Part shown: piece by piece, positions 12,699 to 40,900 of the stretch | How positions within the stretch are numbered: position 1 is the first letter of the stretch | Layout of the letters: each line of letters starts with the position of its first letter | From: Sternotherus odoratus | Lineage: Eukaryota > Chordata > Testudines > Kinosternidae | Reading direction: 5' to 3' | DNA length: 64,000 nucleotides | Assembly: GCA_032164245.1 (NCBI GenBank) | Contig: JAVMKO010000195.1 | Coordinates: forward strand, 124,001 to 188,000 | The notes under the pieces: model-generated | Database searches by the model: none | What the model was told of the DNA's origin: nothing | Seen by the model: only the letters and a program-made list of their open reading frames with translations | Made by a program: the position numbers and the translations under genes

Positions 12699-12747
12699 AT
12701 GGGGCTGGGGGATCTCCTGGTCCCCCTCCTCATTGTCGGGGTGGCCG
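12699..12747 (+). CDS. Gene B exon 1: signal peptide
   Basis: ACCATGG start context. Encodes MGLGDLLVPLLIVGVA, phase 1; donor GTAAGT at 12748. Confidence 0.7.
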
Positions 12748-15700: not shown

Positions 15701-18700
15701 GAGCAAGCGTTCTGAGTGCTTTGCAGAATCCTGTGTCAGTCACACTCTGGGGGAGATGTTTGGATGGTTTCCTTCATTCCTAGAAGGGCTGGAAACAGAG
15801 TCTGCAGCATGTTCCCAGCCCGCAGAGGGTCTTGCCTGAAGTCCAAGACAGTTCCCAGCTCTGCAGACCTGTGTGGTTTATTCACCCCTTTCTCTTTACA
15901 GGTGACCCACTGACGATCCACACCCTGCCCTCCTCCTCGGCTGTGCTGGGCTCTGCAGCGTTGCTGAAATGCCGGTTCAATATTGGGGGGCCGATCGATC
16001 TAGCCACGCTGCAGGTTGACTGGTATTTCTCAGATCAGGACCTGGCACGGTATGAGCGGGGGAAGGAAACATTCACTCCGGGGGTGAGCATCTCCGAGGA
16101 GGAGTTACTGATCGGGAACGCCTCCCTGGGGCTGGAGAACGTACACATGTCGAACGAGGGGCGGTATAAATGTGTGGTCCGCTACGGTGCGGAGCGACAG
16201 CAGAGTGAGACGACCCTCCGCGTCTTCGGTAAGGATGGCACAAAAGACCCCGCGTGTTCAGCCACTGGAACGGGCCGGGTGCTGGTGCAGTGGCCATGGG
16301 GCTCGGCCCCATGCAGGACGGTCACTGAGCTAACGCTGTACTCACGTTCTCTGCCTCTCGTTCCAGCGGCTCCCCAACTCTCCGTCCCCCAGAAATCTGG
16401 GGCGTTAAACGCCGCGAGCTCCTTCCCCTGCCACGTGCGGGGATTCTACCCCGGGGATGTCAACGTCACGTGGCTGAGAGACGGGCGGGTTCTGACCGAC
16501 GCCACCCGCTCTGCCCCCCAGAGGAACCCGGACGGGACCTTTAACCTCACCCTGACCTACACCTTCACCCCCACCGCCGGCGACTCCGGCAGCCTCTTCT
16601 CCTGCCACGTCAGCCACGCGGCTCTGGACCAGCCCCTGCAGGAGAGGTTCCCCCTGGACGTCACAGGTCAGTCTGGGCTGCGGGCGAGGGCAGGATCCTG
16701 GGGTCCAGGCCCCCCTTTATCGCTGACTGGGAGAGATTCACATTGTCCTTTGTCCCTCCATGCCCCCTAAGACTGACTCTGCTGGGATGGTGGGAGGGGG
16801 TGGGGGGTTGTGCTGGCACTGGGTGTGGGGCAGTGGGCACAAGGAACGACCCAGCCTGGCAGGGGTGAGTAATGGGGAGGGGCTGGAGGAGCCAATGGGC
16901 AGGAAGATCCTTGTGCAGCCAAAATACCCAGCACATTCCCCCCACTCTCCATCACAGCGTCCGCTGCCCAGGGATGGAGCCTTTGGCATGACTGAGCCTG
17001 TCTATTATGGACAGGACTGGGGGGTCCCTTGGGCCAGGCGCTGCCCAGACACAGAGGAGGACACAGTCCCTGCCCTGAGCAGCTTCCGGTCTAACCAGAG
17101 CAGACAGACCCCGGGCCGGGGAAGGGGGCAGCGCACCGTTGGGGAGTGGTAGGTAGTGAAGAGGATCGCTGGTCCCTGGTACAGAGCCAGCTGGGTCACT
17201 TGGTCAGCAGAGCACAAGCAAACAAACCGTGTGTTTAAAACGGATAAACGTAAAGACAGACAACTGGGGGCAGGACTCTGCCCTGGGCAGCGATGACTCA
17301 GTGAGAACGTGGGGGTCGTGGTGGATGATAACAATACTAAGTCATGCCATAAACACGCTGACCCCTCTTCGGGCAAGGCCAGGAGGACAGGGGAACAAAT
17401 GACCCAGCGGGTACCGGGGTAGAGCGACCACGTCACTCGTCTGCTGTGTGCTCTCTCCATGTGCCACCCCAGCTCTGCACACGGAGCTGGCTCAGCAGAT
17501 CTCCAGAGTATGACCCCAAAGACCATGTACTCGGTGCTTGGCCAGGTTGTTAACGATATCCTAGTCTAGAATCAGGGTGGTAGCCGTGTTAGTCTGGAAT
17601 AGCAGAGTTAACAAAGTCCTGTGGCACCTTAAAGACTAACTATAAAGTTTTGAAGCATGAGCTTTCGTGGGCTAATACCCACTTCGTCGGATGCAGGCAG
17701 TGGAAGTGTTCACAAACAGGCAGTTATAGAAAAGTAGGTAAGAGCCAGGTGGGAGGTGAAAAGGTTAGTCCAATTAAGCTGAGCCAGCTTGTTATCTCCG
17801 ATCAGGGAGTGTGGATTATTCTTCTAGCATTTGAATGGGGTGTGTGAACATGGAGAGACGAGAAACAATGTCTGTAATGAGCCAACCATTGTAGATCTCG
17901 GTTCAATCCCAGAGTGTGTGTGCTGAATTTGCAAATGAATTGAAGTTCTGCAGTCAGTAAAAACAAGGAGGAGTCCGTGTGGCACCTTGGAGACTGACAT
18001 TGATTTGTTAGTCTCTAAGGTGCCACAAGGACTCCTCGATCTTCTTTCTTCTGATGTGGTCAGTGAGCATTCTACACCTGGTACCAACTGATTTAAACAA
18101 ATCTTCATTTATTACCCCGTGTGACGAAGTGGGAGTACTGTGTGGAGGGCCCCTTCTCCGTACACAGCCTGTTTCCCAGGCCAGGAGCTTCAGGGGTCCC
18201 CACTTCCACCTTCCTGGGTCTGACCTCGGAGCATTCAGCACCTTCTGCCCCTCCGTGTGCTTCCCCCAGCAAGCCCGCCTGGGCGGGGTCCTGGGGGAGC
18301 CCCTGGGTTCTGCACCCCAAATCCACAGTCAAACGTGACTCTCAGCCAGCCAGTAAAACAGGTTTATTCGATGACTTCTAATCACAGACCATACAGCGAG
18401 CGTGAGCCCTCAGCTGGATCCATCTTGGGCCAGAGAGCGAGATCGCTGCTCTCCCCTCTCCTGCCTGGCTCCAGCTAAAAACCAGACTTACCCAAACCCC
18501 CTCCAGCCCCTCCCTGCTCTCCTTTGTCTGTTTCCCGGGCTAGGAGGCATCACCTGACCTCCCTCCAACAGGTTCAGCTGACCTCCCTCCCCCACTTGGG
18601 GTCAGGTTACAGCTTCACCTTGGCTTTGCTTTGCATCAGCTACACATTCCTTTCCCTCCACATAGACGCTTAAGAAATGCATAGGGGAAAGTGAGGCACA

Positions 18701-21700
18701 CACACACAGTACTCCCACTTCATCACACTCTCTGCCTGAGGAGGTTGTGAAATCTGGGACTATAACAGGGTTTAAAAGAGAACTGGATAACTTCATGGAG
18801 GTTAAGTCCATGAATGGCTATTACCCAGGATGGGTAATGAATGGTGTCCCTAGCCTCTGTCTGTCAGAGGGGGGTGATGGATGGCAGGAGAGAGATCGCT
18901 CGATCATACCTGTTAGGTTCACTCACTCCGGGGCACCTGCCATTGGCCACTGTCGGTAGACAGGATACTGGGCTGGATGGACCGTTGGTCTGAGCCAGTA
19001 TGGCCGTTCTTATGTTCTTATGTTCTTATGTCCTAGTGCCAACAACAGGAGTGGATCACGCTGGCGCCGCGATCGGGGCGACCATGGGGATCCTGGTCGC
19101 AGGGGGAGCTGCGGCTGCAATAGCCATTTACTGCTGGAGACGGAGGAGGGCACAGAAAGGTAACACGGGCCCAGTCCAGTGGCTCTGTGGCCCCAGAGGG
19201 AGCAGAGAGGCCAGGGAGGGCTGAGGGGACAGGGACACCCCAGGGGCTGTGGGGCGGTCTCTCTCTCTACCGTTGGAGGGTTTCACCCTCCTGCTCTCAG
19301 GGAGCGTCTCCCAGACCTCCCCCCACCCCGCTGATCCCCTGTGTCGCTCTGACCCCAGGCAGGGGAGCCCCCTCCTCTCTCTCCGCAGTGCTGGGGCTAG
19401 TGTGGTGTCTCCTGGGACAGGAGGTGACCCTGAGCTGTGCAATGGGGGGGACGCATCTGTGACGGGCTGTTCCTGATGGGATCCAACTGCGAGTGTCAGA
19501 TCAGGACAGATTGCTTCCAAAGGGGCAACTACAGCCCAAAGCTGGGGTTTCTTCACACTAAGGCACCAAACCAGCCAAACAGAAAAGACTTTGGTCTCAC
19601 CCCACTGGCTAACCACAAGTCACACAAGCAATTCCCTTAGACACTCCAGCTTCCCAGTATCACCACCAGCAGCCACCTGTCCTGGGGACCAATGGTCATG
19701 AAAACCAATCCCCCAAATAAAGAAAACGGTTCTCCCCAATTCCAAAGAATCAGGCCCCAGACCCAGGTCAATATACAAATCAGATCTTCCCACAAATCAC
19801 GCTGTTGCCAATCCTTTAGAATCTAAAATCTAAAGGTTTATTATGCAAGGAGAAAGGTCTAGGTGAGGGTTAAGAATGGTTAAAAGAAATCAATTACATG
19901 CAGTGATGGCAAATCTCTTGGTTCAGGCTGCATCAGAGGTAGAATGAACTGCAGGTTCAAATCCAGTCTCTGGAATTCATCCCCTCCAGGGATGGGTCAT
20001 CAATGGCAGGGCTGGGAGCAGCCTGTGGCCCCCCAGGCTCAGGGTAACCCCAGGGGCTCCGGTTCTGCCAAATGAACTGACCCCGGAAGGCCCCCCAGCG
20101 ACTCACCCTCCTGCTCAGTTTGTTTTCTAGGACGCTCAGAGTCTCCTGGATCCGAACTGAGCGAGTCCCAGGAAGGGGGAGACGCCGTTGCTGCTGCTCC
20201 AGGTCTCGGGGCTCCGGCACCGAATGGGAACAGCTCAGCCAATGCCAAGGCAGGCCTGGCTGGGCCAGGGACGGCAGGAGCTTTGGCAGAGCCGGCTGGG
20301 AAGCAGGGGACAGGTACGGCCCCCGGTGTCCCTGCAGGGGGAACGGGGGAACCAGTCCCAAACTCGGTGCTGGATACTACACAGGAGAAAGATGCCCAGA
20401 GAGAGACAGGAGGCAATGGTGAGTGTGTGTGTGGGGGTAATATGGACTGAAAGGGGGCAGAAGAAATGCCCAGGATGGCAGGAGAGAGGGGGGAACCTGG
20501 AGGGGCAGAGCAGCAGCCCCAGAGGTATAGGGAGGATGGGGCAGTGCCGGGCCAAAGAGAGCAGAGAGTCTGGGGAGGGCTGAGGGGACAGGGACAGAGC
20601 CAGGGACACCCCAGAGGTGGGGGCTGGGGGGGTCTCTCTACAGACTGATCCCCCTGCAGCAGGGCCCAGCCCCATGGCAGGTTTCACCCTCCTGCTCTCA
20701 GGGATCCGCCGTTCCCAGCCCCCAGCTCCGGCCTGACGTGTCTCCCAGACCCCCCCCCCCCCGACCCCCAGTGTGGCTCTGACCCCGTCTGTCTCGTTGT
20801 CTCTGTCTAGGTCTGTACAGTGCCGTGGAGACGCCCCCCGAGGCCCCAGCTGGGAGCAGAGACTCGACGCACGGCGAGGACACGGTGCGGATGGGGACTG
20901 ACGGGGTCAGCGGTGCCGGGGAGACGCCCCCCGAGGCCCCAGCTGGGAGCAGAGACTCGACGCACGGCGAGGACACGGTGCGGATGGGGACTGACGGGGT
21001 CAGCGGTGCCGGGGAGGGGTCCGAGCGACAGCCGCTGTTACCTGCTCAGGGCCAGGAGCCGAGCGTGACCCAGGAGCAGGACGGGGCGCGGGTCACAGGT
21101 GAGGGGCAGGAGGGGAGAGCGACTCCAAAGGGGTCACGCTATGGGGTCGGTCTCCTTCCGCTGCGTGTGCCGGTGGATCCCACGGTGGGAGGGGGGGGGG
21201 AAACTGCACAGGAGGCAGATGGGGGGAGTCACATGGGGCCAGCCGTATTCACCTGCCCCCATGGCTCACGCGTGAGTCAGGCCCCCAGAATCAGGAACCA
21301 GCTTAAACCCATTTCAGTTCCCGCAGTGGAAGCCAGGACCCTATGTCACGGAGCGCCCGGGCGAGGGTCTGAACCGCTCCCTAGGAAGCCAGACCGGACT
21401 CCGGGGGAAGGGCCCCTTCTCCGTACACAGCCTGTTTCCCAGGCCAGGAGCTTCAGGGGTCCCCACTTCCACCTTCCTGGGTCTGACCTCGGAGCATTCA
21501 GCACCTTCTGCCCCTCCGTGCGCTTCCCCCAGCAAGCCCGCCTGGGCGGGGTCCTGGGGGAGCCCATGGGTTCTGCACCCCAAATCCACAGTCAGACGTG
21601 ACTCTCAGCCAGCCAGTAAAACAGAGGTTTATTCGATGACCCCTACCTGGTCTAACACAGACCATACAGCGAGAGTGAGCCCTCAGCTGGATCCATTTTG

Positions 21701-24700
21701 GGGGCCAGAGAGCTAGGCCAGCTTGCCTGGAGCTCCCTGCCTCTTCCCTGCCTCCCTCCAGCTAGCTTCAGACCCCAAACCAAAACTCTCTCTCTCCAGC
21801 CCCTCCTCCCCCCTGGCTCAGCCAAATCAGGTGATCTCCCTCCCCCACTTGGAGTCAGATTACAGCTTCAGGTATGGACACCTGCAGAGGGGCTCTGCTT
21901 TGCATCAGCTACACATCCTTATCCCTTCACATAGACACTCAAGAAATGCATAGGGGAAACTGAGGCACCCACCCAGTATTCCTACTCCGTCACACTCCCC
22001 TATACGTCTGTTCCTGTTCCAGGCTGAGTTCCCCTCAGAGCTAGACACTGTTTCCTGATATCGAACCTAAACCTCCTGGCTGCGGACGGAGCCCATTACT
22101 GGTTGTCCTGCCGTCAGTGGCCATGGGGAACAATCGGTCACTGTCTTTAATACAGTCCCTGTCAGATGTGAAGTCTTATCAGATCTCCCCCTTGGTCACC
22201 CCTTCTCCAGACTAACCCCACCCCGGTTTTGAACTCATCCTTGCAGGGTAGGTTTTACCCCTTGGATCAGCTTTGTTCCTCTCCTCTGGATTCGCTCCAG
22301 TTTGTCCCTAAGCGCAGCACCCAGAACGGCACACAGTACTGCAGCTGGGCCCCTTCGCCGAGTGGGGCCAGGCAAGGAACTGCTGTCTCGGACATACAAC
22401 CCTCCTGATACTACACCCCAGGCTGACGTTAACCTTCATGCACCTCCCTGCTTTGGAGGGGGGACTGGAAATTCGGTGGGTCGGGGGGGCCACCAGGGGA
22501 CAGAATTACCTTTTACCACCTGTGAAAATTGGTCCAACTGTAGCCTCGCTGTGCACGTCTGACAATCACCATTGACGTGTTCAGAAGCACGTGCGAGTTT
22601 GACAGCTGAGTTCTCTGCACAGTCCACCACCCCCGAGCTCCCGGAGCGAGCTCTGGGCCCGGGCTGAGCTGGGCTTGCCCTGTGCTCTCAGTGGACGCAG
22701 GAACGGAGAACAGGGAGATTGTCTTTCTTGTGCTTTCAATGCCCCTGCCCCCATCTGGCACCCTGGCACCGTGGAGAAGCAGATCCCAGCGGGGCTGGCA
22801 TGCAGAGGGGTGAGGAGCAGTGAGGGAAGGGCTGGGCTGGGGGATAGAGACAGGAAGGACAGGCTGGGCTGGGACATGGCTGTGAGATGGGGACTCAGGG
22901 AGGCATTGGGAGACGTGAGCAGAAGCGTCTGCAACCACTAGACGACGCTCCCCTGCAGACCCTGCGATGGAACCCAAGAGTTCCGTGTCTCCCTCCGCTG
23001 TCCGCTGACTCTGGGCTGTGCCAGGGCTCAAGCACCCCGGGAGAAAATAGTGCTCAGCACCCACCAGCCACAGTGGTACTGGGGCCCCAGACCAGCTGCC
23101 AATCAGCTGTTTGGCTGCCTCCGGGGCGGGGGAGGCGGTGGAGCAGTGAGCGGCTGGCAGGAGGCGCTCAGGTGAGGTAGACGGGAGCAAGTGCCAGGCG
23201 TGCAGGGAGGGGGATCCTCGCGGGAGGGGGCAGAGGTCTCTGGGAGAGGGTGGTGCAGGGGCGGGAAGAGGCAGAGTGAGGGCGGGGCCTCGGGGGAAGA
23301 AGCAGAGTTGGGCATCAAGGCACAGTGGAGGTGGAGTGTCCACTGGGGAAAAAAGAGCCAGCGCCTGTGTCATTCCCCTGTAGTGCCTGATCCACATAGA
23401 GGATAACAGCCTACTGCTGCTGAACTGACCCCCAGCACCAGGGCAGTTGTGGCCCCGCCCCGACTCCTGACCCCTCTCCCGGGTAACCCCAGCACCCCTG
23501 AGGCGGTGGGTGTCACGGGTCATTCAGGGGAGCTCTCGCTGGGTGAGGGGGGGCCCATCAGAGGCTGCTGGGGACACGGGGCCAGGTCAGACCAGATGGT
23601 GACGGGGGGCGTGTGTCAGATCTCCAGCTGCTGTAACAGTGACGTGCAATTTCCACACGTTCTAGCCCCACCACAGACTCCCGTTCTCCGAGAGATCTCC
23701 TGGCCGCAGGTCCTGACCCCCGGGGAGTCGGTTACACTGAGCTGCCAAATATCCGGGTTCTACCCCAAGGAGCTGAGCGTGACCTGGCACCGACGGGGAA
23801 AGGGAGAGTCAAAGTTCAGGTGCTTAGACAACCCGGACACCCACCAGATTGTCACCCCAGACCCCACAGCCGCGCAGGACAGGAAGTCCTACAGCGTGAC
23901 GTCCCAGCTCCGCTTCACCCCCATGCTGCCCGAGGACGAGGGGGCAGAGTACAGGTGTTCAGTGGAACATCAAACCCTACGGGAGCCTGAAGCCAAATCC
24001 ACTGGGCCGCTGCAGCTCCGAGGTACGAGCGACGGGACCGGGCAGTGGGGTCGTTGTGGCCGAGGAGGTCTCTGCTCTCGGGCACTTGGAGGGTCCAGAC
24101 AGAGTGTGGCTTTGGGCTGAGCCTCCTCTGGGCGGTTCCTGGAACGTTTGGGGACTTGCCCGTTGGAAAGAGGGTGTCAGGTCTGGGGAGAATTGATGGG
24201 CGGGTGCAGCAGCCCCTCTGTTCAAACCTGGGTTCGGTTTTCCAATGGAGGCTGGGACTCACCCTCATGGTGTCCAGGAGGAGAACAACGTCTCCTCCCC
24301 AAACTCCCAGCCCCGGGGCTGAGGGGAGAGGAGGAATCGTCTGGGGAATGTCAGCACAATCTGGGGTCTGGTTTGGGAATGGGAACGGCACCTCTGAGAA
24401 GGTTTCACCTAAAGTCTCTGACCTCTGTTGACCCCGTTTGCTAATAGCAGCTGGGTCTGTCTCCTTCCCACACCACCATGACCAAACCCCACCGAAAACC
24501 AGCGGCAAAGGGACCGGTGAAGACATTAGCTGTAATTAAGAGAAGTGATTAATGGCCGTTCCCAGTCTTTGATCTTATGGGCACAACTGGCCCTTACCCA
24601 GGAGAGCTGCTGCTCCCCACACTGTGCGGTGGGACTGACACCACCTCATGGGGTCGGTCCCTTTTCCACCAGTGAGGCCACCCATGGTAAAGATGGCTGC

Positions 24701-27700
24701 CGTCTCCTGTTGTTTCAATGGGACTGAATCTACCGGCTGCCCTCAGGAAAGATGGCCGACCACTTGAAAAGGAGGCTGCCAGTACCAGAGATGGCCACCA
24801 TCTCCCATGGTTTCCATACAACAGGGGCCATGCTGCCCCCCCGAAGAGCCCCCCCCCCACGTGGTCCTTGGCTAGAAAACGGGGCTGGAAATTGTGAGGC
24901 GACATCTGTGCCGTGAGCCCCAGCTTGATTCTGGGGAGCAGCAGCAACTGAGGGGCCTGGGGCAGAAACGCTCCCAGCGCGGGTGCTCCGAGGAGCTGTG
25001 GCGGGCCTAGGGATCAGACGCAGCACTGGATGGGCTCCCCGCAGCGCTAAGAGGCAGGCACTGCTGGGTGGGGTTAGGGGGTAAAGACCGGCACACTGAC
25101 TCCCCCAGCACCATTAGCCTCCCCCACTGTCTGCCTCCAGCCTCTCCCCTCCCTTCCATACGCCCCCACAGCCCACTTGTGTCCCACTCCATTCCCCCGA
25201 GTGGGGGTGTGGCACAGAAAAGCCCGTAAGAACTCTACTGGTTGTGTAAAAGACAGGACGGCTGGTTACATGTGATTCCCTCCCCCGTTACCTCCCCCCC
25301 AGCATGAACCATACAAAGCGAGGAAGCACCAAGTTCTGGGGCAGCTCTGAGCCGTCCCCTGACACTCCCACAAGACGTCTCCAGGGACGGTGACAGACTC
25401 ACCCCCTCGCAGGGGAGCTCCCGGTGCCTGTACGGGGTGCACCCGGCAGCTGGGAAGAGCCAGGCTCAGCCCGGGCCGACAGACACGCACTCAAATTGCT
25501 CCAGCTAGTGCCCAACAATCGCCCTGGGGGATTCCTGGCCCAGTCCTGGGGCTTCCTCGTTCAGGTGTGTGGCGTTTAATACAAGAGCCTGGACATGGGC
25601 ATCTCGTGCGAGATCAGCTCAGCCTGTCCCTACCCGCTCCCTTTCCCAGCGACGACTCCCACGTTACAGCTCTTCGCTTCCCAGCCCTGTCACTAACACT
25701 CCTGCTGTCCCCCCCAGCCCGGGCGCAGGTGTCCGGGATCCAGGTGTTATCGCACTGGGAGCCCCGGGACAAGGTGCCGTTTGCCGTCCAGATCCAGAAC
25801 TTTTACCCCCGGGAGATTCACCGGATCCAGTGGCGCTGTGATGGAGAGAATTGGAAAAACCCTGACAGTACAAAAATCACCCAGAACCCGGATCTCACGT
25901 TCAGCGCGACAAGCGTCTGGAGAATCCCCAGTGACCAAATCACCCATCCGGAATTTACAGTCACCGTGTCCGTTCAGCAAACCCCTCAAAGCTCCCCGAT
26001 GGAGAGAAAGATCAGAGCCAGGGACACAGGTGAGGGGGGGGGTCCCTGGGGTCACACGGGGAATGAACAGGAATCGCTGCCCCCCCGCGGGGTCCCTGAG
26101 GGATGAAGGAGCTTTGGGAGCTAATATCCCTTGTCCCCCTTTCCGGCTGGAGATGCCGATGTGTCGGGCTGTAACAGTGTCACACCCAGGGGTGATTTTA
26201 TGGGGTACCAGCCCCAGTGAGGGGTCAGATCTCTCCTGTCTGAAGGGAGGGGGGAGCAGCCCCTGCCAGCCCCCATCTCCCCCTTGCGGGGCCTGTAACT
26301 GTCTCTGGATGTTTCATTCCCAGGTCTCCTGCGGCCCCCGAAGGTGTCAGAAATCTCCCAGCCCCAGTCGGTGACAGAGGGGGAGAAAATCACCCTGAGC
26401 TGCCGTGTGACGGGGTATTTCCCTGAGGCGCTGAGCGTGACCTGGCTCAGGTGGCACAGGGTGCCCAGGGAGGCTTTTCCCCTGCAGGACACTGCCAAGT
26501 ACAGAATGGACCCCGGAGCTCCCCGCACACAGGACGGGAAAAGCTTCCAGCAGGAGACGAGACTCAGCTTCACCCCCTCGGTGGAGAGAGACCGGGGGGC
26601 AGAGTTCATCTGCCGGGTGGAACACGTCGCCCTAAGGACCCCCCTGGAGAGCCGCAGCGGGGAGCTGCACGTGGTTGGTCAGTTTCTGGATATGAATTTA
26701 CATCCTTCCAGCCCCTTACTGTGTCCGTGTGTGAAGCCCCCTGGGCTGGGATCAGCTACCTTATGATCTGTACTTGAAATGTTTGGGCATCTGCACTTGC
26801 ACTTAGGCACACGGGTCAGTTCTGATGGATCTTCACACCCACTGCAAATCCAAACCCAGCCTCATCCCCTGTCTAGGTCAGCCCCTTGCTAACATGGCTG
26901 GAGTTATTGTTCTGGGCAGATATTTGGGCAGAGTGAGCACGTAGGTGAACCCCAAATGTCAGCTAGAGCCCGGTGCCCGTGTCACCCCTCGTGTGGGTCA
27001 GTGGGAGAGCAAGGACCCTATCACTGGCATGATGGGGACAGGAACCTGCTCCCAGCCAGACACACCCGCTGCAGGGTCCGTAACCCAGACTCCGTAACCA
27101 GTCCCGGCCCAGCTGGAGCTCCGTGGCCATGGGAGCGAGGAGCTGACCCAGACGGTCAGACGTTGGCTGGCCGAGGTGATGAGGCCCCACGCTGAACGGC
27201 GCGTCTCTGTGTGTCCGTCCGTCTGTAACGCGGTGACATCTGAACACACGTCCCGTCCCTTCCAAACCGGCCGGGAATGGTCTGGGAGCCCTGGTCAGGA
27301 CCCTGTTGATCTGGGGACGATCGGCACATCAAAAGAGAGGAAAAGGGGGGTGCGTGGAGCCGCGGTCCCCTGTCTGTGGGTGGCACTAGCAGCACCACAC
27401 CCCCGGCTCCTCCTCCCGATAGGGTGTGACATGCTGACCCCCACCCACGGGGAGAAATCACTGCCCCCCCTGCCGGGAGCCACGGGGCGGATGCTCAGCC
27501 AGCAGGGGCAGCTGGAGAGAGCAGGCTTCATTCCTGCCTTCCTCAGAGCCCCCTCCGGGTGGGGGACGAGAGCACCAGCCCCCCACCCCTCTCTTCCAAT
27601 CCAGGGCCCTGAGAGGTACTTTGGGGGCGGGGGGGAAGGAGAGAGAGACGCAGAGCCCCTGACACGGTGAGGAGAATGGGGAACCCCAGGGGCTCCGGTT

Positions 27701-28182
27701 CTGCCAAAGGATCTGACCCCAGGGGGCCCCTCAGCGACTCAGCCTCCCGCTCGGTTTGTTTTCTAGAAGGTGCAGATTCTGCACCAACCAAACCATCCGA
27801 GGGCACAACCAGTGACACATCGGCAGAGGAACAGGCGGGAGACAACACAGCCGACGAGGGCACAACCAGCGACCCAGCGACAAAGGAACAGGCGGGAGAC
27901 AACACAGCCGACGAGGGCACAACCAGCGACCCAGCGACAAAGGAACAGGCGGGAGACAACACAGCCGACGAGGGCACACCCAGCGACCCAGCGACAAAGG
28001 AACAGGCGGGAGACAAGACAACCGACGAGGGCACACCCAGCGACCCAGCGACAAAGGAACAGGCGGGAGACAGGACAACCGACAAGGGAGCAACCAGTGG
28101 CCTGGCCGAGGACGGCCCAGGCAGTGCTACACCAGGAAGCAAGGAGAAGGGAGCTGGTCGCCAGCCCCACTCCAGTGAATAA
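12699..28182 (+). CDS. Gene B: NCR3LG1-like IgSF protein with Ig exons beyond the TM exon
   Basis: Ten exons join in phase 1 throughout: 12699-12747, 15902-16228, 16367-16666, 19037-19159, 20131-20418, 20811-21098, 23666-24022, 25718-26029, 26324-26677 and 27767-28182. The total is 2814 nt (937 aa plus stop). Order: signal peptide (1-16), V (17-125), C1 (126-225), TM (about 236-258, followed by WRRRRAQK), two linker exons (267-458), three Ig-like exons (459-799) and a 19-residue-repeat tail (800-937). The V and C1 domains resemble B7-H6. The three late Ig exons fall on the cytoplasmic side if the whole model is one transcript. The alternative is two units: a short V-C1-TM protein ending near 21.1 kb and a separate 3' unit that has lost its own leader and TM. 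I found no leader or TM exon between 21.1 and 27.7 kb. The ISRE lies upstream and the poly(A) signal is at 28612. Confidence 0.55.
12978..13335. repeat. Minisatellite in gene B intron 1
   Basis: Ten or so copies of TCTGTCTATGGGTGCTGTGT separated by variable G-rich spacers, giving units of about 30-45 bp. Confidence 0.92.
13340..15901. other. Gene B intron 1, repeat-derived, no coding seen
   Basis: Contains a CR1-like fragment of another subfamily near 14280-14395 (AACTGGACACGTGCC...GAGTTAATTCCTGGAACAAC). There is a reversed piece of the SINE-like repeat seen at 17570 (CTATTCCAGACTAACACGGC at about 15075). The block at 13340-13990 looks like an old retroelement but I cannot name it. Confidence 0.4.
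15902..16228 (+). CDS. Gene B exon 2: Ig V domain
   Basis: Acceptor TCTCTTTACAG and donor GTAAGG, 327 nt. Cys pair LLKCRF and RYKCVV, Trp in VDWYF, and the F-strand pattern NEGRYKC. The segment FTPGVSIS followed by GNASLGLENV matches the B7-H6 V-domain layout. Confidence 0.85.
16367..16666 (+). CDS. Gene B exon 3: Ig C1 domain
   Basis: Acceptor CGTTCCAG and donor GTCAGT, 300 nt. C1 marks are FPCHVRGFYPGDV, VTWLRDGRV, DGTFNLTLTYTFTPT and FSCHVSHAAL. The closest relative in the window is the decayed exon at 31455. Confidence 0.87.
17560..17700 (+). mobile_element. SINE-like interspersed repeat
   Basis: Contains GGTAGCCGTGTTAGTCTGGA, CCTGTGGCACCTTAAAGAC and GAGCTTTCGTGGGCTAATAC, a string I associate with a common turtle interspersed element. 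Partial reversed copies occur near 15075 and 18010. Confidence 0.6.
17968..18036. repeat. Near-perfect inverted repeat (31-bp arms)
   Basis: The left arm AGGAGTCCGTGTGGCACC... (17968-17999) is complementary to ...GGTGCCACAAGGACTCCT (18006-18036), with a spacer of about 6 bp. It is made from two opposed pieces of the SINE-like repeat. Confidence 0.8.
18120..18727. mobile_element. Rearranged LTR1 (copy 5) with inverted ends
   Basis: The left end is the forward LTR1 terminus (TGTGACGAAGTGGGAGTACT), but after about 25 bp it switches to reverse-oriented LTR1 body and ends in the reversed terminus ACTCCCACTTCATCACA. The same LTR end is therefore present at both edges, inverted. Confidence 0.85.
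18728..19031 (+). mobile_element. CR1 3' end abutting the gene B TM exon
   Basis: Sense CR1 3' terminus (GTTTAAAAGAGAACTGGATAA, then GGACCGTTGGTCTGAGCCAG), closing with three TTCTTATG repeats. Only about six bases separate the terminal repeats from exon 4, so the acceptor's pyrimidine tract is CR1-derived. Confidence 0.88.
19037..19159 (+). CDS. Gene B exon 4: transmembrane segment
   Basis: Acceptor TTATGTCCTAG and donor GTAACA. Encodes a stalk (PTTGVDHAG), about 23 hydrophobic Ala/Ile/Gly residues, then the stop-transfer CWRRRRAQK. Confidence 0.8.
20131..20418 (+). CDS. Gene B exon 5: Ala/Gly/Pro-rich cytoplasmic linker
   Basis: Acceptor TTTGTTTTCTAG and donor GTGAGT, 288 nt with no stop in phase. 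Low-complexity, with an acidic start SESPGSELSESQEGGD. It lies on the cytoplasmic side of the TM. The intron just upstream (20035-20130) is clearly homologous to that before exon 10 (27670-27766). Confidence 0.65.
20811..21098 (+). CDS. Gene B exon 6: linker with duplicated 31-residue unit
   Basis: Acceptor CTCTGTCTAG and donor GTGAGG, 288 nt. It opens with LYSAVE, a YxxV tyrosine site that could be a phospho-target (not a full ITIM because the -2 residue is Gly). It then has two identical 31-residue (93-bp) units starting ETPPEAPAGSRDSTHGED. Confidence 0.65.
21344..21994 (-). mobile_element. Solo LTR, family LTR1 (copy 6)
   Basis: TGTCACGGAGCGC ... CTCCGTCACA. CCCTA precedes the element and recurs three bases after its end, a likely target duplication with small junction changes. 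Confidence 0.85.
22005..22390 (-). mobile_element. CR1 LINE fragment, antisense
   Basis: Antisense CR1 strings: CTCCTCTGGATTCGCTCCAG, then GCACCCAGAACGGCACACAG, with GGTTGTCCTGCCGTCAGTGG upstream. Confidence 0.75.
22391..23665. other. Region before the late Ig exons, no gene seen
   Basis: I looked here for a leader or TM exon that would start a separate gene and found none that is convincing. The block 23150-23300 is purine-rich (GGGCGGGG-type repeats). Confidence 0.4.
23666..24022 (+). CDS. Gene B exon 7: Ig C1-like domain beyond the TM
   Basis: Acceptor ACGTTCTAG and donor GTACGA, 357 nt, phase 1-1. C1 marks are LSCQISGFYPKEL, VTWHRRGK and EYRCSVEHQTL. Cysteine pair and Trp are intact and the frame is open. 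An extra Cys sits in the loop SKFRCLDN. Confidence 0.8.
24690..24797 (+). promoter_or_regulatory. Cluster of YY1-like AAGATGGC motifs
   Basis: AAGATGGC at 24690-24697 and 24749-24756, plus AGATGGCC near 24789. YY1 recognises AAGATGGCGGC-type sites. This could mark an internal promoter for the late exon block, but no initiator or leader exon is visible. Confidence 0.2.
25718..26029 (+). CDS. Gene B exon 8: Ig-like domain lacking the first Cys
   Basis: Acceptor CCCCCCAG and donor GTGAGG, 312 nt. It keeps the C1 outline (VQIQNFYPREIHRIQW) but has Gln where the B-strand Cys is expected, and no YxC in the F strand (FTVTVSVQQ). It is therefore Ig-fold without the disulphide, as in some intracellular Ig domains. 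Confidence 0.72.
26324..26677 (+). CDS. Gene B exon 9: Ig C1-like domain
   Basis: Acceptor CATTCCCAG and donor GTCAGT, 354 nt. LSCRVTGYFPEAL, VTWLRWHR and EFICRVEHVAL give an intact Cys pair and Trp. It is clearly paralogous to exon 7. Confidence 0.8.
26678..27766. other. Gene B intron 9, no TM exon found
   Basis: Checked for a hydrophobic exon that would place the late Ig domains outside the cell; none was seen. The last ~95 bp are homologous to the intron before exon 5. Confidence 0.45.
27767..28182 (+). CDS. Gene B exon 10: acidic 19-residue repeat tail and stop
   Basis: Acceptor TTTGTTTTCTAG, phase 1, stop TAA at 28180-28182. Encodes about five units of a 57-bp repeat (EGTTSDPATKEQAGDNTAD and variants). 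The unit keeps the frame, so copy number could vary without breaking the protein. No TM or tyrosine motif. Confidence 0.7.
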
Positions 28183-28611
28183 CGTGGCGCCAGACGCCGT
28201 GGTCAGTGCCCCACCGGCTGGGGGCCCAGAGCCCGAGGCCCATGCCACACGCAGGGGGGATGATACAGACAGGGCCACGCGGGAGGAAGAACCGGGAGCA
28301 GACGGGACAGCAGACGACGTCTCTCCAGGCAGCTCCGCGGGACAGCAGGGACCGCGCTGCCCCAGCTGACCAGGCCCTGTGGGCACAGCCGCCCTGCTGC
28401 CATCGCTCGCTTGCTCCGGTCTCCCTGTGTCTGACGCGGCTCCCTGCCCCGGGCTGAGCTGGCCACAGTAACTGAGGCTTCCTGGACTTGCTGGTATGGG
28501 GGCTGCTCGCTCGGGGGCTGGGCTGGGGGAAATGGGGGCTCAGGGCTGCCCCTCCTGGCAGCCGTCTCTGTCACACTGCCCCAGTCTGGCTGTGGGGCAT
28601 GTGCTCAGGTG

Positions 28612-28617
28612 AATAAA
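28612..28617 (+). terminator. Poly(A) signal, gene B
   Basis: AATAAA 430 bp after the stop, followed at once by GTGTCTGTCAG-rich repeats that could act as the downstream GU element. Confidence 0.65.
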
Positions 28618-28627
28618 ACCGGCACTC

Positions 28628-29078
28628 AGCGAGTCCCCGTGTCTGTCAGTCGCTGTCCCCTGGGCCGGGTGAATCCCCGTGTCCTGTCAGTCGCTGTCCC
28701 CTGGGCCGGGTGAATCCCTGTGTCCTGTCAGTCGCTGACCCCTGGGCCGGGTGAATCCCCGTGTCTGTCAGTCGCTGTCCCCTGGGCCGGGTGAATCCCC
28801 GTGTCCTGTCAGTCGCTGTCCCCTGGGCCGGGTGAATCCCCGTGTCTGTCAGTCGCTGACCCCTGGGCCGGGTGAATCCCCGTGTCCTGTCAGTCGCTGT
28901 CCCCTGGGCCGGGTGAATCCCCGTGTCTGTCAGTCGCTGTCCCCTGGGCCGGGTGAATCCCCGTGTCTGTCAGTCGCTGACCCCTGGGCCGGGTGAATCC
29001 CCGTGTCCTGTCAGTCGCTGTCCCCTGGGCCGGGTGAATCCCCGTGTCTGTCAGTCGCTGTCCCCTGGGCCGGGTGTG
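28628..29078. repeat. ~41-42-bp minisatellite at the gene B 3' end
   Basis: Ten or eleven units of GTCAGTCGCTGTCCCCTGGG plus CCGGGTGAATCCCCGTGTC, beginning about 15 bp after the AATAAA. Confidence 0.93.
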
Positions 29079-31350: not shown

Positions 31351-31454
31351 AGCGGGCTTTTCGCTCCTGCAGGATCCCAGGGACTCAGACCCACCGGGAC
31401 AGTTTGACTCTCGGGGCATCAGATTCAATCTCGGCCCCTCTCCCTGATTTCCAG

Positions 31455-31742
31455 CCGCTCCGAGGATCATCGTCCCCCGGCGATCGGGGATGAGACGCAC
31501 GGCGATCGCCTTCCCGTGCCGGGGTGGGGATCCTACCCCAGGGACAGCACCGTCCCGGGGCTGAGAGACGGGCGGGTTCGGACTGAATCCACATAGTCTA
31601 CCCCCGAGGGGACCCGGACAGGACCTTTCACCTCACCCCGACCTGCACCTTCACCCCACGGAGGGGGACAGAGGCAGCCTCTTCTCCTGCCGCGTCAGCC
31701 CCACGGCTCAGCCCCTGCAGGAGGGTCCCCCCGGCGGTCACA
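31455..31742 (+). pseudogene. Decayed Ig C1 exon of the A/B/C family
   Basis: An acceptor-like TTTCCAG precedes CCGCTCCGAGGATCATCGTC. The sequence then tracks gene B exon 3: TTCCCGTGCCGG, GAGAGACGGGCGGGTTC, GAGGGGACCCGGACAGGACC, CAGCCTCTTCTCCTGCCGCG and CAGCCCCTGCAGGAGG. The frame is broken by in-frame stops, indels and loss of the FYPGDV motif. It ends in GTAAGAG. No linked V or leader exon was found, so it is a relic of a further family member between genes B and C. Confidence 0.75.
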
Positions 31743-34962: not shown

Positions 34963-37900
34963 GTGAGTAGCCCCCGGACCCCCCCGGACCCCGACCCGCC
35001 CCCAGGGGCAGGAAACCCGCCCGGGGCCAGCGAGGGGAGGGTGTGTGGGGCGGGCGCAGGGTCCCGGGGCGGGCGCAGGGTCCCGCGGCGACTCGGGGCT
35101 GGGAGCCCGGACACCTGGGTTCTCTCCCGGGGGGGGGGCTGGGAGCCAGGACTCCTGGGTTCTCTCCCGGCTCTGGGAGGGGAGTGGGGGCCAGGACTCC
35201 TGGGTTCTCTCCCGGCTCTGTGAGGGGAGTGGGGGCTGGTGGGTCAGAGCAGGGGGGGCTGGGAGCCAGGACTCCTGGGTTCTTACCCCCATTGGTCCAC
35301 CCCATGGCCAGGCCTCACCACAAACCCACGTCGCGCTCCCTGTGGGTCGTTCCTGCCCCCCAACCCCCTCGCACCCATCACCAGCAACCCGCCCTGGGTC
35401 CTGGGGCTAAATCTCACACACCCCTCCGCCCCCCGGGGACCAGCTCAGGGCTGGCGCCAGGGCCCTGGGGGGCCCAGCGTGGGGCTGCGAGTGTCATGGC
35501 CACAGAGTCGGTTAACGCCGCTGGGGGGACCGAGCCCCAGTCTCCCCATTCGGAAGAAGGCGGGTCGGGCAGATGGGGTTGGCTGTGGGGTGGGGCTCAG
35601 GGTGGTGCTGACGTGGGGGTTGGCTGTGGGGTGGGGTCAGGGGGGTGCTGACGTGGGGGTCGGCTGTGGGGTGGGGGCTCGGGGGGTGCTGACGTGGGGG
35701 TCGGACATGGGACGGGGTCCTGCTCCCCACCCCACTCCAGCGGGGGAACTACTAGGGTGAGGGTGGCCCCTGAGGGGAGCCTGAAGTAGAAGACTCAGCC
35801 TGGGGGGGCACAGGACAGGAGAGGGGCTGGGCTGGGGGCACAGGGGGTGGGTGGGGCAGGAGGTTCAGGCTGGGGGCACTGGGTGGGGGGGGCCTGGGGC
35901 AGTGACCAGGGTGGGGAGATGGGCAGGGGGAACGGGGCAGTGACGAGGGTGAGGGTATTCGGGGGGGGAGGAAATGGGGCAGTGACCAGGGTGGGGGTAT
36001 TCGGGGGGGGCAGTGATGGGGGGGGTTGCCGGGCACCGTGGAAGGGCCACACCACAAGCTGCACAAACAGGAAGCCCGTCGCTTCCTCTCCCTGAGGCTC
36101 GGCGCCACCCGAACCCAGCGCCCGGCCCACGTGGGACACGAGGCTGCCAGGCCTCAGCCTGGAAACCCCCCCGGCGCTGACTGGCCCTTGCAGAGGGGAT
36201 GTGGGCTCCCGTGGGGCTGGGGGGGGGCTCAGTCCCTGGGGGGTGGAGGGGCTCCCCTCAGGTTGCCCCACCCCTGCCCCCCACGCCCCGCTGAGCGGCG
36301 AGTGACCCCCTGTCACGGAGCGCCCGGGCGATGGTCTGAACCTCTCCCTAGGAAGCCAGACCGGACTCCGGGTGAAGGGCCCCTTCTCCGTACACAGCCT
36401 GTTTCCCAGGCCAGGAGCTTCAGGGGTCCCCACTTCCACCTTCCTGGGTCTGTCCTCGGAGCATTCAGCACCTTCTGCCCCTCCGTGTGCTTCCCCCAGC
36501 AAGCCCGCCTGGGCGGGGTCCTGGGGGAGCCCATGGGTTCTGCACCCCAAATCCACAGTCAGACGTGACTCTCAGCCAGCCAGCAGAATAGACGGTTTAT
36601 TTGAGATGTCAGGAACCATCCAACTCACAGCTTCTCAGTCTCAACAGGGTCCATCCAGTTAGGCCTTTCTGGGGTGCTAGGAGGTGAGACCCAGATTCTG
36701 GGCTCCTGCTTCTCCCCCAGGTTTATTCGATGACTTTCATCTGGTCCAACACAGACCATGCAGCGATAGAGCGTGAGCCTTCCGCTGGATCCATCTCGGG
36801 ACCAAGAGGGAGAAGATGGCTTCTCTCCCCTCTCCAGCTAGACCCAGACCCAGACTGACCCAAAGCCCCCTCTCTAGCCACTTCCTGCTCCTTTGTCTCT
36901 TTGTCTGGTTTCCCGGGCTTCAGGTGTTACCTGACCTACCTCCCCCACCAGGGGTCAGGTTACAGCTTCCAGGGATGCACAGAGGGGAGGGCGTTGCCTC
37001 CTTGCTTCCAGCATCAGCCCCTATCCCTTCACATAGACACTTAAGAAATGCATAGGGGAAACTGAGGCACGCACACACAGTACTCCCACTTCGTCACACA
37101 TGTCAGGAACCATCCAACTCACAGCTTCTCAGTCTCAACAGGGCCCATCCAGTCAGGCAGGTCTTTCTGGGGTGCCAGGAGGTGAGACCCAGATTCTGGG
37201 CTCCTGCTTCTTCCCCAGGTTTATTCGATGACTTCTAATCACAGACCATACAGCGAGCGTGAGCCTTCAGCTGGATCCATCTTGGGCCAGAGAGCCAGTT
37301 GGCTTCTCTCCCCTTCCCAGCTAGACCCAGACTGACCACTCCCCCACCTCCAGTCCCTCTGTCCTTTTCTTTGTCTGGTTTCCCAGGCTTGAGGTATCAC
37401 CTGACCTCCCTCCCCCACCTGGGGTCAGGTTACAGCTTCACCCATTAACACCTGCAATGTTTGCTCTGCATCAGCTACACATTCCTTTCCCTCCACATAG
37501 ACACTCAAGAAATGCATAGGGGAAACTGAGGCACACACACACACACAGTACTCCCACTTCGTCACAACCCCGTCTGTCTGTCTGTCCGTGCAGGGGGTGC
37601 TCTGAAGGTCTCCGTCCCCACCTCCCAGATGCGGGTTGTGATGGGCTCCGACGTGTTCCTGGGCTGTCGTTTCTCCGTGGGGGGCCCCGTGGACCTCGGT
37701 CGGCTTGTGGTGCAGTGGAAGCTGGGGGACCGCGTGGTGGCCGAGTTCGATGACGTCCCGTCGTACCCCCGGGCCGGGGCCAGCATGTCCCTGGAGGGGC
37801 TGCGGGTCGGCGACGCCTCCCTGCTCCTCCCGCGGGTGGGGGGCACCGACGCCGGACTCTACACCTGCATAGTCATCGTCCCCCCGACCCGGGAGAGTCA

Positions 37901-40900
37901 GCCCGTGGAGCTGCGCGTGGAAGGTAATGGCGGGTGGGCTGGGGCGGGGGGCAGAGCCCGGAGGGGCCGTGGCTGAAGGTTTGGGACCAGAGCCCCCCCG
38001 TGGCCCCAGCACCCCGGATACATCCTGTCCCGGAGCGCCCGGGCGATGGTCTGGAACCGCTCCCTAGGAAGCCAGACCGGACTCCGGGGGAAGGGCCCCT
38101 TCTCCGTACACAGCCTGTTTCCCAGGCCAGGAGCTTCAGGGGTCCCCACTTCCACCTTCCTGGGTCTGACCTCAGAGCATTCAGCACCTTCTGCCCCTCC
38201 GTGTGCTTCCCCCAGCAAGCCCGCCTGGGCGGGGTCCTGGGGGAGCCCATGGGTTCTGCACCCCAAATCCACAGTCAGACGTGACTCTCAGCCAGCCAGC
38301 AGAATAGACGGTTTATTTGAGATGTCAGGAACCATCCAACTCACAGCTTCTCAGTCTCAACAGGGTCCCTCAGTCAGGCCTTTCTGGGGTGCCAGGAGGT
38401 GAGACCCAGATTCTGGGCTCCTGCTTCTCCCCCAGGTTTATTCGATGACTTCCATCTGGTCCAACACAGACCATGCAGTGAGCGAGCGTGAGCCCTCCGC
38501 TGGATCCATCTTGGGGCCAGAGAGCCAGATGGCTTCTCTCCCCTTCCCAGCTAGACCCAGACTGACTGACCACTCCCCCACCTCCAGTCCCTCTGTCCTT
38601 TCCTTTGTCTGGTTTCCCGGGCTTCAGGTATCACCTGACCTCTCTCCAACAGGTTCAGCTGACCTCCCTCCCCTACTTAGGGTCTGGTTACAGCTTCACC
38701 CATTAACACCTGCAGTGGTTTTGCTTTGCATCAGCTACACATTCCTTTCCCTCCACATAGACGCTCAAGAAATGCATAGGGGAAACCGAGGCACACACAC
38801 ACACAGTACTCCCACTCCCAGATCTGTGTTGGGAGGGCCTGGCCACATGGTGATCTGTGGGGGGAGGGTCCCAGCTGCATTGAGGGGTCAGCCCCACCTC
38901 CCCCGTGGGGCAACAGCTGCCCCTTCCCCATGGGCCAGCCAAGTCTCCATGGGCAGCACCACGGGATGAGGGTGGTTGGGGGGCGGAGGAGGAGGTTGGG
39001 GGGCAGAGGAAGAGGTGGGGGGGAGACGGGGGGAATGAGGGTGGTTGGGGGTAGAGGAAGAGGTTGGGGGGCAGATGGGGTGGATGAGGGTGGTTGGGGG
39101 GCAGATGGGGCAGATGAGGGTGGTTGGGGGGCAGAGGAGGGTGGTTAGGGGGAGCTGACGGGGTCTGGGCCCCATTGACTCTCCCTCCCCCTGGCAGCCC
39201 CGCCCCGTGTCTCAGTGAGGGACACCGTGGTGAGTCCCGGCGAGCTCAGCACCGTGACCTGCAGCGTGAGCAGCTTCTACCCCGGGGACGTGACCGTCTG
39301 GTGGCTGCGGGGTGACGAGGTCGTGAGGGGCCCCGAGACGCCCCCCGCCCAGCCGGACCCCCACGGCCGGTACAACGCGACCAGCGTCCTCCAGTTCCCG
39401 CCCAACCTCCCGGACGCCGACGCCACCTACTCCTGCCGCGTGAACCACGTCGCCCTGGGGGAGCCGATCCAGGAGACCTTCCGGCTGAGTGTGCTCGGTG
39501 AGTCACCCCACAGCACCCCCCACTTCTCTACATGCCCCCGCAGCACCCCCCACTGCCCATCCCCCGCCAGGACCCCCCACTGCACCCCCCTTCTCGACAC
39601 GCCCCCGCAGCACCCCCCACTGCCCATCCCCCGCCAGGACCCCCCACTGCACCCCATTCCCTGCACTGCACCCCCACTTCTCTACATGCCCCCACAGCAC
39701 CCGCCGCTTCCCATCCCCCGCCAGGACCCCCCACTGCACCCCATTCCCTGCACTGCACCCCCGCTTCTCTACATGCCCCCGCAGCACCCGCCGCTTCCCA
39801 TCCCCCGCCAGGACCCCCCACTGCACCCCCCTTCTCGACACGCCCCCGCAGCACCCCCCACTGCCCATCCCCCGCCAGGACCCCCCACTGCACCCCCCTT
39901 CTCGACACGCCCCCGCAGCACCCCCCACTGCCCATCCCCCGCCAGGACCCCCCACTGCACCCCATTCCCTGCACTGCACCCCTACTTCTCTACATGCCCC
40001 CGCAGCATCCGCCGCTTCCCATCCCCCGCCAGGACCCCCCACTGCACCCCCCTTCTCTACATGCCCCCGCAGCACCCCCCACTGCCCATCCCCCGCCAGG
40101 ACCCCCCACTGCACCCCATTCCCTGCACTGCACCCCCACTTCTCGACACGCCCCCGCAGCACCCCCCACTGCCCATCCCCCGCCAGGACCCCCCACTGCA
40201 CCCCCCTTCTCGACACGCCCCCGCAGCACCCCCCACTGCCCATCCCCCGCCAGGACCCCCCCACTGAACCCGCCTTCTCAACACGCCCCCGGAGCACCCT
40301 CCACTTCCCATCCCCCTTCTCGACACGCCCCCGCAGGACCCCCCACTGCCCATCCCCCGCCAGGACCCCCCCCACTAAAACCCCCTTCTCGACACGCCCC
40401 CGCAGCACCCCCCACTTCCCATCCCCCTTCTCGACACACCCCCGCAGCACCCGCCGCTTCCCATCCCCCGCCAGGACCCCTGTCCCGGAGCGCCCGGGCG
40501 AGGGTCTGAACCGCTCCCTGGGAAGCCAGACCGGACTCCGGGTGAAGGGCCCCTTCTCCGTACACAGCCTGTTTCCCAGGCCAGGAGCTTCAGGGGTCCC
40601 CACTTCCACCTTCCTGGGTCTGACCTCGGAGCATTCAGCACCTTCTGCCCCTCCGTGTGTGTTGTGAGGTACTTTGGAGATTGCGAGACAAGGCACACAC
40701 ATGTGGTTAAGTAAATAAAGTAGGTGAGTTTATTGGAAGGTCCCGGTCCGGGCGCTGAGGGGGCTTATCAGATCAGCGCGACCGCAGAAGGAGAACCCGG
40801 TCTCTTCGGAGCCGTAGGCCGGGGAAAAGAGTAAGGAAAGCCCCACAGATAGCCCACAGGAGTGGGCTTAAGTACACTCACACATTTACATCTCATACAT

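What the first reader, a model, noticed from the sequence alone, without database searches (positions are those of the whole stretch)
19037..28182. Gene B: three Ig-type exons lie downstream of the TM exon
After a clear TM and stop-transfer (WRRRRAQK) the same phase-1 chain continues through two low-complexity exons, three Ig-like exons and a repeat tail, with every exon open. If it is one transcript, the protein has Ig domains in the cytoplasm. That is very unusual for a lymphoid IgSF receptor. One of them (exon 8) has lost its disulphide cysteines, which would suit a reducing compartment.
Basis: partly seen in the sequence, partly recalled or inferred. Interest (0 to 1): 0.88.

Follow-up and report, generated by a model that had tools for sequence, protein, structure and literature searches.

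The report
Immune receptor with cytosolic Ig domains
A turtle-like genome window holds ten open, frame-compatible exons that would encode one cell-surface immune receptor with three antibody-type (Ig) domains predicted to sit inside the cell; predicted proteins from sharks, fish, frogs and crocodilians share this layout, and the inner domains likely act as an internal binding module, which would be a new way to build an immune receptor.

Summary
Ten exons (12699-28182) join in phase 1 into a 937-codon open chain: leader, V, C1, TM, two low-complexity exons, three C1-set exons and a repeat tail. It is not a local oddity. Of 246 proteins examined (245 database hits plus this one), 153 have V, one TM and 1-11 Ig domains after it, from shark and chimaera to turtles. 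The same post-TM domains are fused to pyrin domains in frogs (18 proteins) and to a TRIM core in bichir and reedfish (7); in a domain tree their nearest relatives are post-TM domains. A Mauremys model matches gene B through its tail. Gene C in this window and a paralogue on the same contig have an Ig exon 131 and 163 bp after TM. The two-gene reading is therefore unlikely; a cytosolic location is well supported but inferred. The mechanism (a cytosolic binding module used like B30.2 in butyrophilins) is inference. Against: no transcript was seen; two neighbouring paralogues lack the Ig array; some models skip the TM; some models look like fused neighbours. Ten literature searches found no description, but two relevant papers could not be read.

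The parts
12699..12747 (+). Leader exon of gene B, MGLGDLLVPLLIVGVA
   Evidence: found again by the leader scan
15902..16228 (+). V-set exon (ectodomain)
   Evidence: Pfam V-set 2.1e-10; junctions
16367..16666 (+). C1-set exon (ectodomain, Ca)
   Evidence: Pfam C1-set 4.2e-18; B7-H6 among the best solved matches by sequence; fold of the Chelonia relative likewise
19037..19159 (+). Transmembrane exon with WRRRRAQK stop-transfer
   Evidence: 75-78% identical to Chelonia and Mauremys over 40 residues
19359..19462 (+). Relic of the first post-TM Ig exon (D1), ends in a stop; begins 199 bp after the TM exon; not used in the model
   Evidence: 78-81% over 32 residues to P0001 and P0016; D1 profile 27 bits; ends read
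20131..20418 (+). Low-complexity exon cyt1; inclusion unverified
   Evidence: open, GT/AG; no match in the ten relatives
20811..21098 (+). Low-complexity exon cyt2 with 93-bp repeat, YSAV and ERQPLL (dileucine-type) motifs; resembles a stretch of the D1 Ig exon
   Evidence: weak D1 profile match 14.5 bits
22959..23008 (+). Possible alternative terminal exon (DPAMEPKSSVSPSAVR stop); no second copy found on the contig
   Evidence: read; no paralogous match
23666..24022 (+). Post-TM Ig exon C1b
   Evidence: C1-set 1e-13; 78% to Mauremys P0007
25718..26029 (+). Post-TM Ig exon C1c without the canonical cysteine pair
   Evidence: C1-set 1e-4; 62% to P0007; seven-strand fold in the model of the Chelonia relative
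26324..26677 (+). Post-TM Ig exon C1d
   Evidence: C1-set 4.3e-10; 65% to P0007
27767..28182 (+). Repeat tail exon with stop codon
   Evidence: 62% to the C-terminus of P0007
28612..28617 (+). AATAAA, the first one after 19716
37590..37922 (+). Gene C V exon (approximate ends)
39179..39502 (+). Gene C C1 exon (approximate ends)
53131..53244 (+). Gene C TM exon
   Evidence: letters
53376..53696 (+). Gene C post-TM Ig-type exon, 131 bp after its TM exon
   Evidence: 56% to Gopherus P0051 residues 308-423; weak Ig profile match 22 bits; no Pfam match at E 0.1; letters

Best explanation
Ten open, phase-matched exons at 12699-28182 would encode one single-pass receptor with a B7-H6-like V-C1 ectodomain, followed after the TM by three C1-type Ig domains that are predicted to lie in the cytosol and likely act there as a binding module, much as B30.2 does behind the TM of butyrophilins. 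Shown: the open chain, the canonical junctions, the same order in many predicted relatives, and the same Ig modules on predicted pyrin and TRIM proteins. Inferred: that one transcript spans all exons, that the C-terminal side is cytosolic, and that ligand or endosomal signals (YSAV, ERQPLL) are coupled to partner binding by the inner Ig array. Untested guess: the array binds a variable cytosolic partner through the loop between strands C and D, or pairs with Ig arrays of related proteins. Likelihood: one gene with cytosolic Ig about 0.85; the B30.2-like role about 0.4.
For: Open 10-exon chain, no polyA signal between 19716 and 28612, no V match between TM and C1b. 153 of 246 proteins have V..TM..Ig; the first post-TM Ig starts within 60 residues of the TM in 143 of 153. 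Mauremys P0007 matches V, C1, TM, cyt2, C1b, C1c, C1d and tail. Gene C and paralogue B2: Ig exon 131 and 163 bp after TM. Frog pyrin and bichir TRIM fusions; the nearest relatives of their Ig domains are post-TM domains. Net charge of 15 residues after the TM +3.6, before it -1.0; higher after in 137 of 153. Sequons, observed/shuffled: before TM 515/219; after TM 491/378; pyrin/TRIM Ig 52/43; turtles after TM 2/8.3. Cysteines per domain 2.06 before, 2.87 after, 3.44 in pyrin/TRIM proteins. No stops in 6 paralogous post-TM exon copies; for three of them a neutral simulation gives none in 3%. Residue variability of turtle Cc: 1.29 bits in the C-D loop, 0.46 elsewhere; ectodomain Ca 0.80 and 0.84.
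Against: No transcript or topology data. Neighbouring paralogues g3 and g4 have V-C1-TM-cyt2 and a long low-complexity tail with no Ig exon found before the next gene, so the array is dispensable. Twelve V-bearing models lack a detected TM (one of them, P0065, shows one). Some models look like fused neighbours (P0001, P0073, P0116, P0206). Frog post-TM domains are not poor in sequons (390 against 288 expected). Ka/Ks of post-TM copies is 0.61-2.48, weak evidence of constraint. The loop signal is small: six single-pair Cd tests give p 0.01-1.0 and are not independent; in Cc the loop excess is silent as well as amino-acid changing (pN/pS 0.59), and the ectodomain loop has pN/pS 2.8 on 8 changes. 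ITIM-like motifs outside Ig domains in 2 of 153, so no known signalling route is visible.
Confidence: 0.62

Rival explanations
1. Two adjacent genes: a V-C1-TM receptor ending near 21-23 kb, and a separate downstream gene made of C1b-C1d and the tail.
For: Paralogues g3 and g4 show that V-C1-TM-cyt2 can stand alone. The intron is a mosaic: 21098-21343 matches the sequence after cyt2 in g3 and g4 (90-92%), 23419-23666 matches the sequence before Cb in B2 (98%). A Mauremys model (P0006) starts with read-through just before C1b, and 22959-23008 could be a terminal exon. Fused models seem to occur.
Against: No polyA signal 19716-28612; no V domain between TM and C1b and no leader-like exon, by a scan of limited sensitivity; Mauremys P0007 carries both halves; TM-to-Ig introns of 131 and 163 bp in gene C and B2; the layout recurs in ten vertebrate groups. 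Even a separate start without leader would leave the Ig domains cytosolic.
Confidence: 0.1
2. The Ig exons serve a secreted isoform: the TM exon (also phase 1) is skipped, so V-C1-C1b-C1d is exported.
For: Twelve of 246 models have V but no detected TM, among them Caretta P0015 with cyt2 joined to Cb and alligator P0017 and P0018 with Ca joined to Cd; P0065 does show a TM.
Against: 153 models keep the TM. Turtle post-TM domains are poor in sequons (2 against 8.3 expected) and the Cc class has lost its cysteine pair. Pyrin and TRIM fusions mostly have no export signal: 1 of 25 has a hydrophobic N-terminus.
Confidence: 0.1
3. An internal promoter also makes a soluble, leaderless cytosolic protein of C1b-C1d plus tail beside the full receptor (compatible with the best explanation).
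For: Mauremys P0006 begins MVTGGVCQ; the window is open from the same ATG at 23596 and 83% identical over 143 residues. Frog and bichir proteins made of such modules without TM are predicted.
Against: The stretch is the acceptor region of the exon, so the start may be an annotation artefact; no promoter evidence was sought.
Confidence: 0.25
4. Gene B is a decaying chimera of no function.
For: D1 is a relic; the mosaic intron suggests recombination between g3/g4-like and B2-like genes; Ka/Ks is near or above 1 in several copies.
Against: All ten exons open; a counterpart in Mauremys with the same tail; no stops in the 11 paralogous exon copies compared.
Confidence: 0.1

Closest known systems
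B7-H6 (NCR3LG1) and the PD-L1/B7 type of V-C1 ectodomain
   Same: Ectodomain V-C1: in the model of the Chelonia relative the best solved two-domain receptor matches are B7-H6 (TM-score 0.84-0.85 by target length); B7-H6 is among the best sequence matches of the window's ectodomain
   Different: B7-H6 has no Ig domain after its TM (recalled)
Butyrophilins (V-C-TM-B30.2), TRIM-B30.2 and pyrin proteins
   Same: Parallel layout: one module found behind a receptor TM, behind RING/B-box/coiled-coil, and behind a pyrin domain; the B30.2 side of the comparison is recalled
   Different: The module here is a tandem C1-set array; no B30.2/SPRY match in the post-TM Ig and tail exons (cyt1 and cyt2 were not scanned)
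SIRP family
   Same: V and C1 domains; databases name some relatives SIRP-like; sequence similarity of the post-TM Ig domains to SIRP chains
   Different: No ITIM-like motif in gene B or turtle relatives; Ig domains after the TM
UrIg, a non-rearranging shark V-C1 molecule
   Same: V followed by C1 domains; matched by sequence and fold
   Different: Described as a non-rearranging Ig-like gene of the elasmobranch MHC (passages of PMC10751288); no post-TM Ig mentioned in the passages read; the primary paper was not held
AjNLR-new of sea cucumber
   Same: A membrane immune receptor with an intracellular Ig domain (abstract and section list of PMC13133943)
   Different: Extracellular NACHT, echinoderm; no relationship tested

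Membership tests
B7-H6-like V-C1 receptors | V-set followed by C1-set ectodomain with leader and TM | tested here: met
   fold on the Chelonia relative
B7-H6-like V-C1 receptors | Tail without folded Ig domains (recalled) | tested here: not met
   three C1-set domains after the TM
Butyrophilin | B30.2/SPRY domain after the TM | tested here: not met
   Pfam scan of the three post-TM Ig exons and the tail exon gives Ig models or nothing; cyt1 and cyt2 not scanned
Butyrophilin | Module after TM shared with TRIM and pyrin proteins | tested here: met
   for the C1 array in frog and bichir relatives, not in this genome
SIRP | ITIMs in the tail (SIRPA) or short tail (SIRPB), recalled | tested here: not met
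V-C1-TM-cytosolic-C1 family seen here | V, C1, one TM, then at least one Ig domain in one chain | tested here: met
   gene B model and 152 of 245 hits
V-C1-TM-cytosolic-C1 family seen here | One mRNA and cytosolic topology | not testable with these tools
   no transcript or protein data

The most novel reading that the evidence does not exclude
Jawed vertebrates carry an undescribed class of immune receptor in which antibody-type C1 domains work in the cytosol: a tandem C1 array serves as an interchangeable intracellular recognition module, placed behind a B7-H6-like receptor (sharks to turtles), a pyrin domain (frogs) or a TRIM ligase core (bichirs), as a counterpart of B30.2, with a diversifying C-D loop as its binding face.
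Probability: 0.4. Interest if true: 0.95.

Novelty: new variant of a known kind. Interest (0 to 1): 0.85.

Why it matters
C1-set Ig domains are the signature of antigen receptors and MHC and are thought of as extracellular (recalled). A family that keeps arrays of them behind the membrane, and swaps them onto pyrin and TRIM cores, would mean vertebrates have used the antibody fold as an intracellular immune module. It would give a testable link between surface recognition and inflammasome or ubiquitin pathways, in groups whose genes are now mostly annotated as uncharacterized or SIRP-like.

Tried and rejected
Alternative terminal exon at 22959-23008: open to a stop, but no paralogous match on the contig stretch searched. 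Leader search in 21099-23665: none, but the scan also found none for genes A and C. ITIM search: none in turtles. Ka/Ks as proof of constraint: inconclusive. Loop diversification: suggestive; the Cb segment was wrongly placed and was corrected, where Cb shows little, crocodilian Cd little (1.49 against 1.36 bits), and Cc has an excess of silent changes too. Sequon depletion: clear in turtles, not in frogs. Literature: ten searches gave no description of such a family; this covers only the open-licence library, and one search listed 10 of 572 papers, mostly unrelated uses of the word. Fu et al. 2019 (J Immunol 202:1992) and Flajnik et al. 2023 (UrIg) are not held and were not read; they are known to me here only from the reference list of PMC10751288 and could contain prior art. 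A genome-wide count of Cc, Cb and V exons in the own genome could not be made because the tool did not complete.

Full report
The observation. Reading 17001-29000 and joining the exons confirms the chain. Upstream exons that the finding left out complete the gene: leader 12699-12747, V 15902-16228, C1 16367-16666. Ten exons, all with GT/AG and phase 1, give 937 codons and a stop at 28180-28182. Pfam calls C1-set in all three post-TM Ig exons. The middle one has no canonical cysteine pair. The first AATAAA or ATTAAA after 19716 is at 28612.

Relatives. The search with residues 460-900 (only the 7991 candidates sharing most words were scored) gave 72 proteins from turtles, crocodilians, frogs, a salamander, lungfish and bichirs. 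Two further searches, from a frog hit (134 hits, 120 listed) and a bichir hit (107 hits), brought the total to 245 different proteins; no bird or mammal is among the names listed. My profiles, built from five Ig types plus pyrin and TRIM cores, were run on all 245 and the window protein. Result: 153 of 246 have V, exactly one detected TM and at least one Ig after it (14 turtle, 16 crocodilian, 94 frog, 16 bichir or reedfish, 7 teleost, one each of lungfish, coelacanth, chimaera, shark and lizard, and the window). The number of Ig domains after the TM runs from 1 to 11. The rest: 20 without V but with TM between Ig domains, 2 with TM and later Ig only, 12 with V but no detected TM (P0065 among them shows one), 29 with neither, 5 with several TM, 18 with pyrin, 7 with TRIM. 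Group names were assigned by me from the organism names. These are predicted proteins, not sequenced transcripts.

Pyrin and TRIM. Pfam confirms PYRIN plus C1-set in P0057 and P0061, and RING, B-box, TRIM coiled coil plus three C1-set stretches in P0064, P0070 and P0072. Pyrin and RBCC cores are cytosolic by established knowledge. In the domain tree (96 rows, 120 columns, about half of the inner branches unresolved) frog pyrin-linked Ig domains group with frog post-TM domains, and bichir TRIM-linked ones with bichir post-TM domains; no ectodomain C1 falls inside these groups, though two bichir ectodomain C1 lie just outside the Cc group. Three pyrin models also contain V (P0073, P0116, P0206) and, like P0001, may be fused neighbours.

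Topology signals. Mean net charge of 15 residues is -0.95 before and +3.57 after the TM (higher after in 137 of 153, lower in 10, equal in 6). N-glycosylation sequons are 2.35 times the shuffled expectation before the TM (353 domains), 1.30 times after (797 domains) and 1.2 times in the pyrin and TRIM proteins (90 domains); turtles 3.4 and 0.24 times, crocodilians 3.3 and 0.51, frogs 2.2 and 1.35, bichirs 1.7 and 1.4, teleosts 3.5 and 1.7. So the post-TM domains as a whole behave like the cytosolic control, but depletion is seen only in the reptiles. Of domains longer than 70 residues, both most-shared cysteine columns are kept in 95% of V and 93% of ectodomain C1, and after the TM in 87% of Cb, 85% of Cd, 68% of 31 Ca-like, but 7% of Cc; in pyrin and TRIM proteins 100% of Cb, 88% of Cd and 0% of Cc. 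So only the Cc type has lost the pair.

One gene or two. The first Ig after the TM begins within 60 residues in 143 of 153 proteins; gene B (204 residues) is one of ten exceptions. A likely reason is visible: a relic of that first Ig exon (D1) lies at about 19359-19462 and ends in a stop, and the cyt2 exon resembles part of D1 (14.5 bits; the shared stretch around GTDGVSGAGEG..QPLL is seen by comparing). Gene C in this window has its TM exon at 53131-53244 and an Ig-type exon at 53376-53696; the latter is recognised by its relative P0051 and weakly by my profiles, not by Pfam. Mauremys P0007 aligns to V, C1, TM, cyt2, C1b (78%), C1c (62%), C1d (65%) and the tail (62%), with a long linker of its own before C1b. 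Caretta P0015 joins cyt2 directly to Cb, as in the window model, but skips the TM.

The contig. The window is C195:124001-188000 of a 1.76-Gb genome. In 244 kb of it a paralogue B2 on the minus strand reads V, C1, C1, TM, D1, Cc, Cd, Cc, Cd, Cd, Cb between about 298.0 and 286.9 kb, with 163 bp between TM and D1; D1 of B2 is interrupted by an insertion that looks like a SINE. Paralogues g3 and g4 (318.6-311.7 and 331.2-327.3 kb) have V-C1-TM-cyt2 and a long low-complexity tail, and my profiles found no Ig exon after it. The 21098-23666 intron of gene B matches g3 and g4 at its start and B2 at its end, so gene B may have arisen by recombination between the two kinds.

Selection. Gene B against B2 copies: Ka/Ks 0.61-2.48 in six post-TM comparisons and, against B2, g3 and g4, 0.62-1.78 in five ectodomain ones; no stop in any of the 11 copies. 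For Cb, one Cc and one Cd, a neutral simulation with the same number of changes gives a mean of 3.5 stops and none in 3%. Amino-acid changes gather in the C-D loop of Cc and Cd but not of the ectodomain C1. In Cd the loop has only amino-acid-changing differences, but the six single comparisons give p 0.01 to 1.0 and share branches; in Cc the loop also has many silent changes (pN/pS 0.59), and the ectodomain loop shows 7 amino-acid-changing to 1 silent. In frogs the contrast with the ectodomain is small (loop/rest 1.30-1.70 against 1.32).

Structure. An AlphaFold2 model of Chelonia P0013 (36 rows; mean pLDDT 72, pTM 0.43) shows confident V and C1, a TM helix at 235-262, a disordered linker, and three folded Ig domains (mostly 72-93 per ten-residue block, one loop of Cb under 50) including the cysteine-free one. 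The window's own protein was not folded. Foldseek's lowest E-values are multi-Ig chains (B-cell receptor, titin); the best two-domain receptor matches of the ectodomain are B7-H6.

How it likely works. Shown: an open chain and its recurrence. Inferred: a receptor that binds a B7-like partner outside, carries trafficking-type motifs (QPLL in 13 of 20 turtle or window proteins, in P0002, P0003, P0004 and P0011 within the D1 Ig region), and uses the inner C1 array to bind a cytosolic partner. The parallel with B30.2 rests on shared company (receptor TM, pyrin, TRIM), not on shared fold.

Known work. Ten literature searches found no account; the nearest is a sea-cucumber membrane NLR with an intracellular Ig domain (abstract and section list seen). 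Passages of PMC10751288 were read. Two closely relevant papers could not be read, so the claim of novelty is provisional.

Noticed in passing
window 42018-49192: A 45-bp minisatellite of about 160 copies at 98% match lies between the C1 and TM exons of gene C.
   Followed up: no
window 7805-9912: Gene A: V and C1 exons, a TM-like exon near 9171 and a short tail; no Ig exon after it was found.
   Followed up: partly
window 31454-31742: A stray C1 exon, 77% identical in DNA to the ectodomain C1 of gene B, looks like a leftover copy.
   Followed up: no
window 20131-20418 and 27767-28182: The cyt1 and tail exons have nearly the same acceptor region, as if one low-complexity cassette had been duplicated (read).
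   Followed up: partly
C195:274131-331185 (L017-L023): An inverted cluster of gene A-, B- and g3/g4-like paralogues about 86 kb downstream of the window's end.
   Followed up: partly
L019, C195 about 294.2 kb: The D1 Ig exon of paralogue B2 is split by an insertion resembling a SINE with splice-like ends.
   Followed up: no
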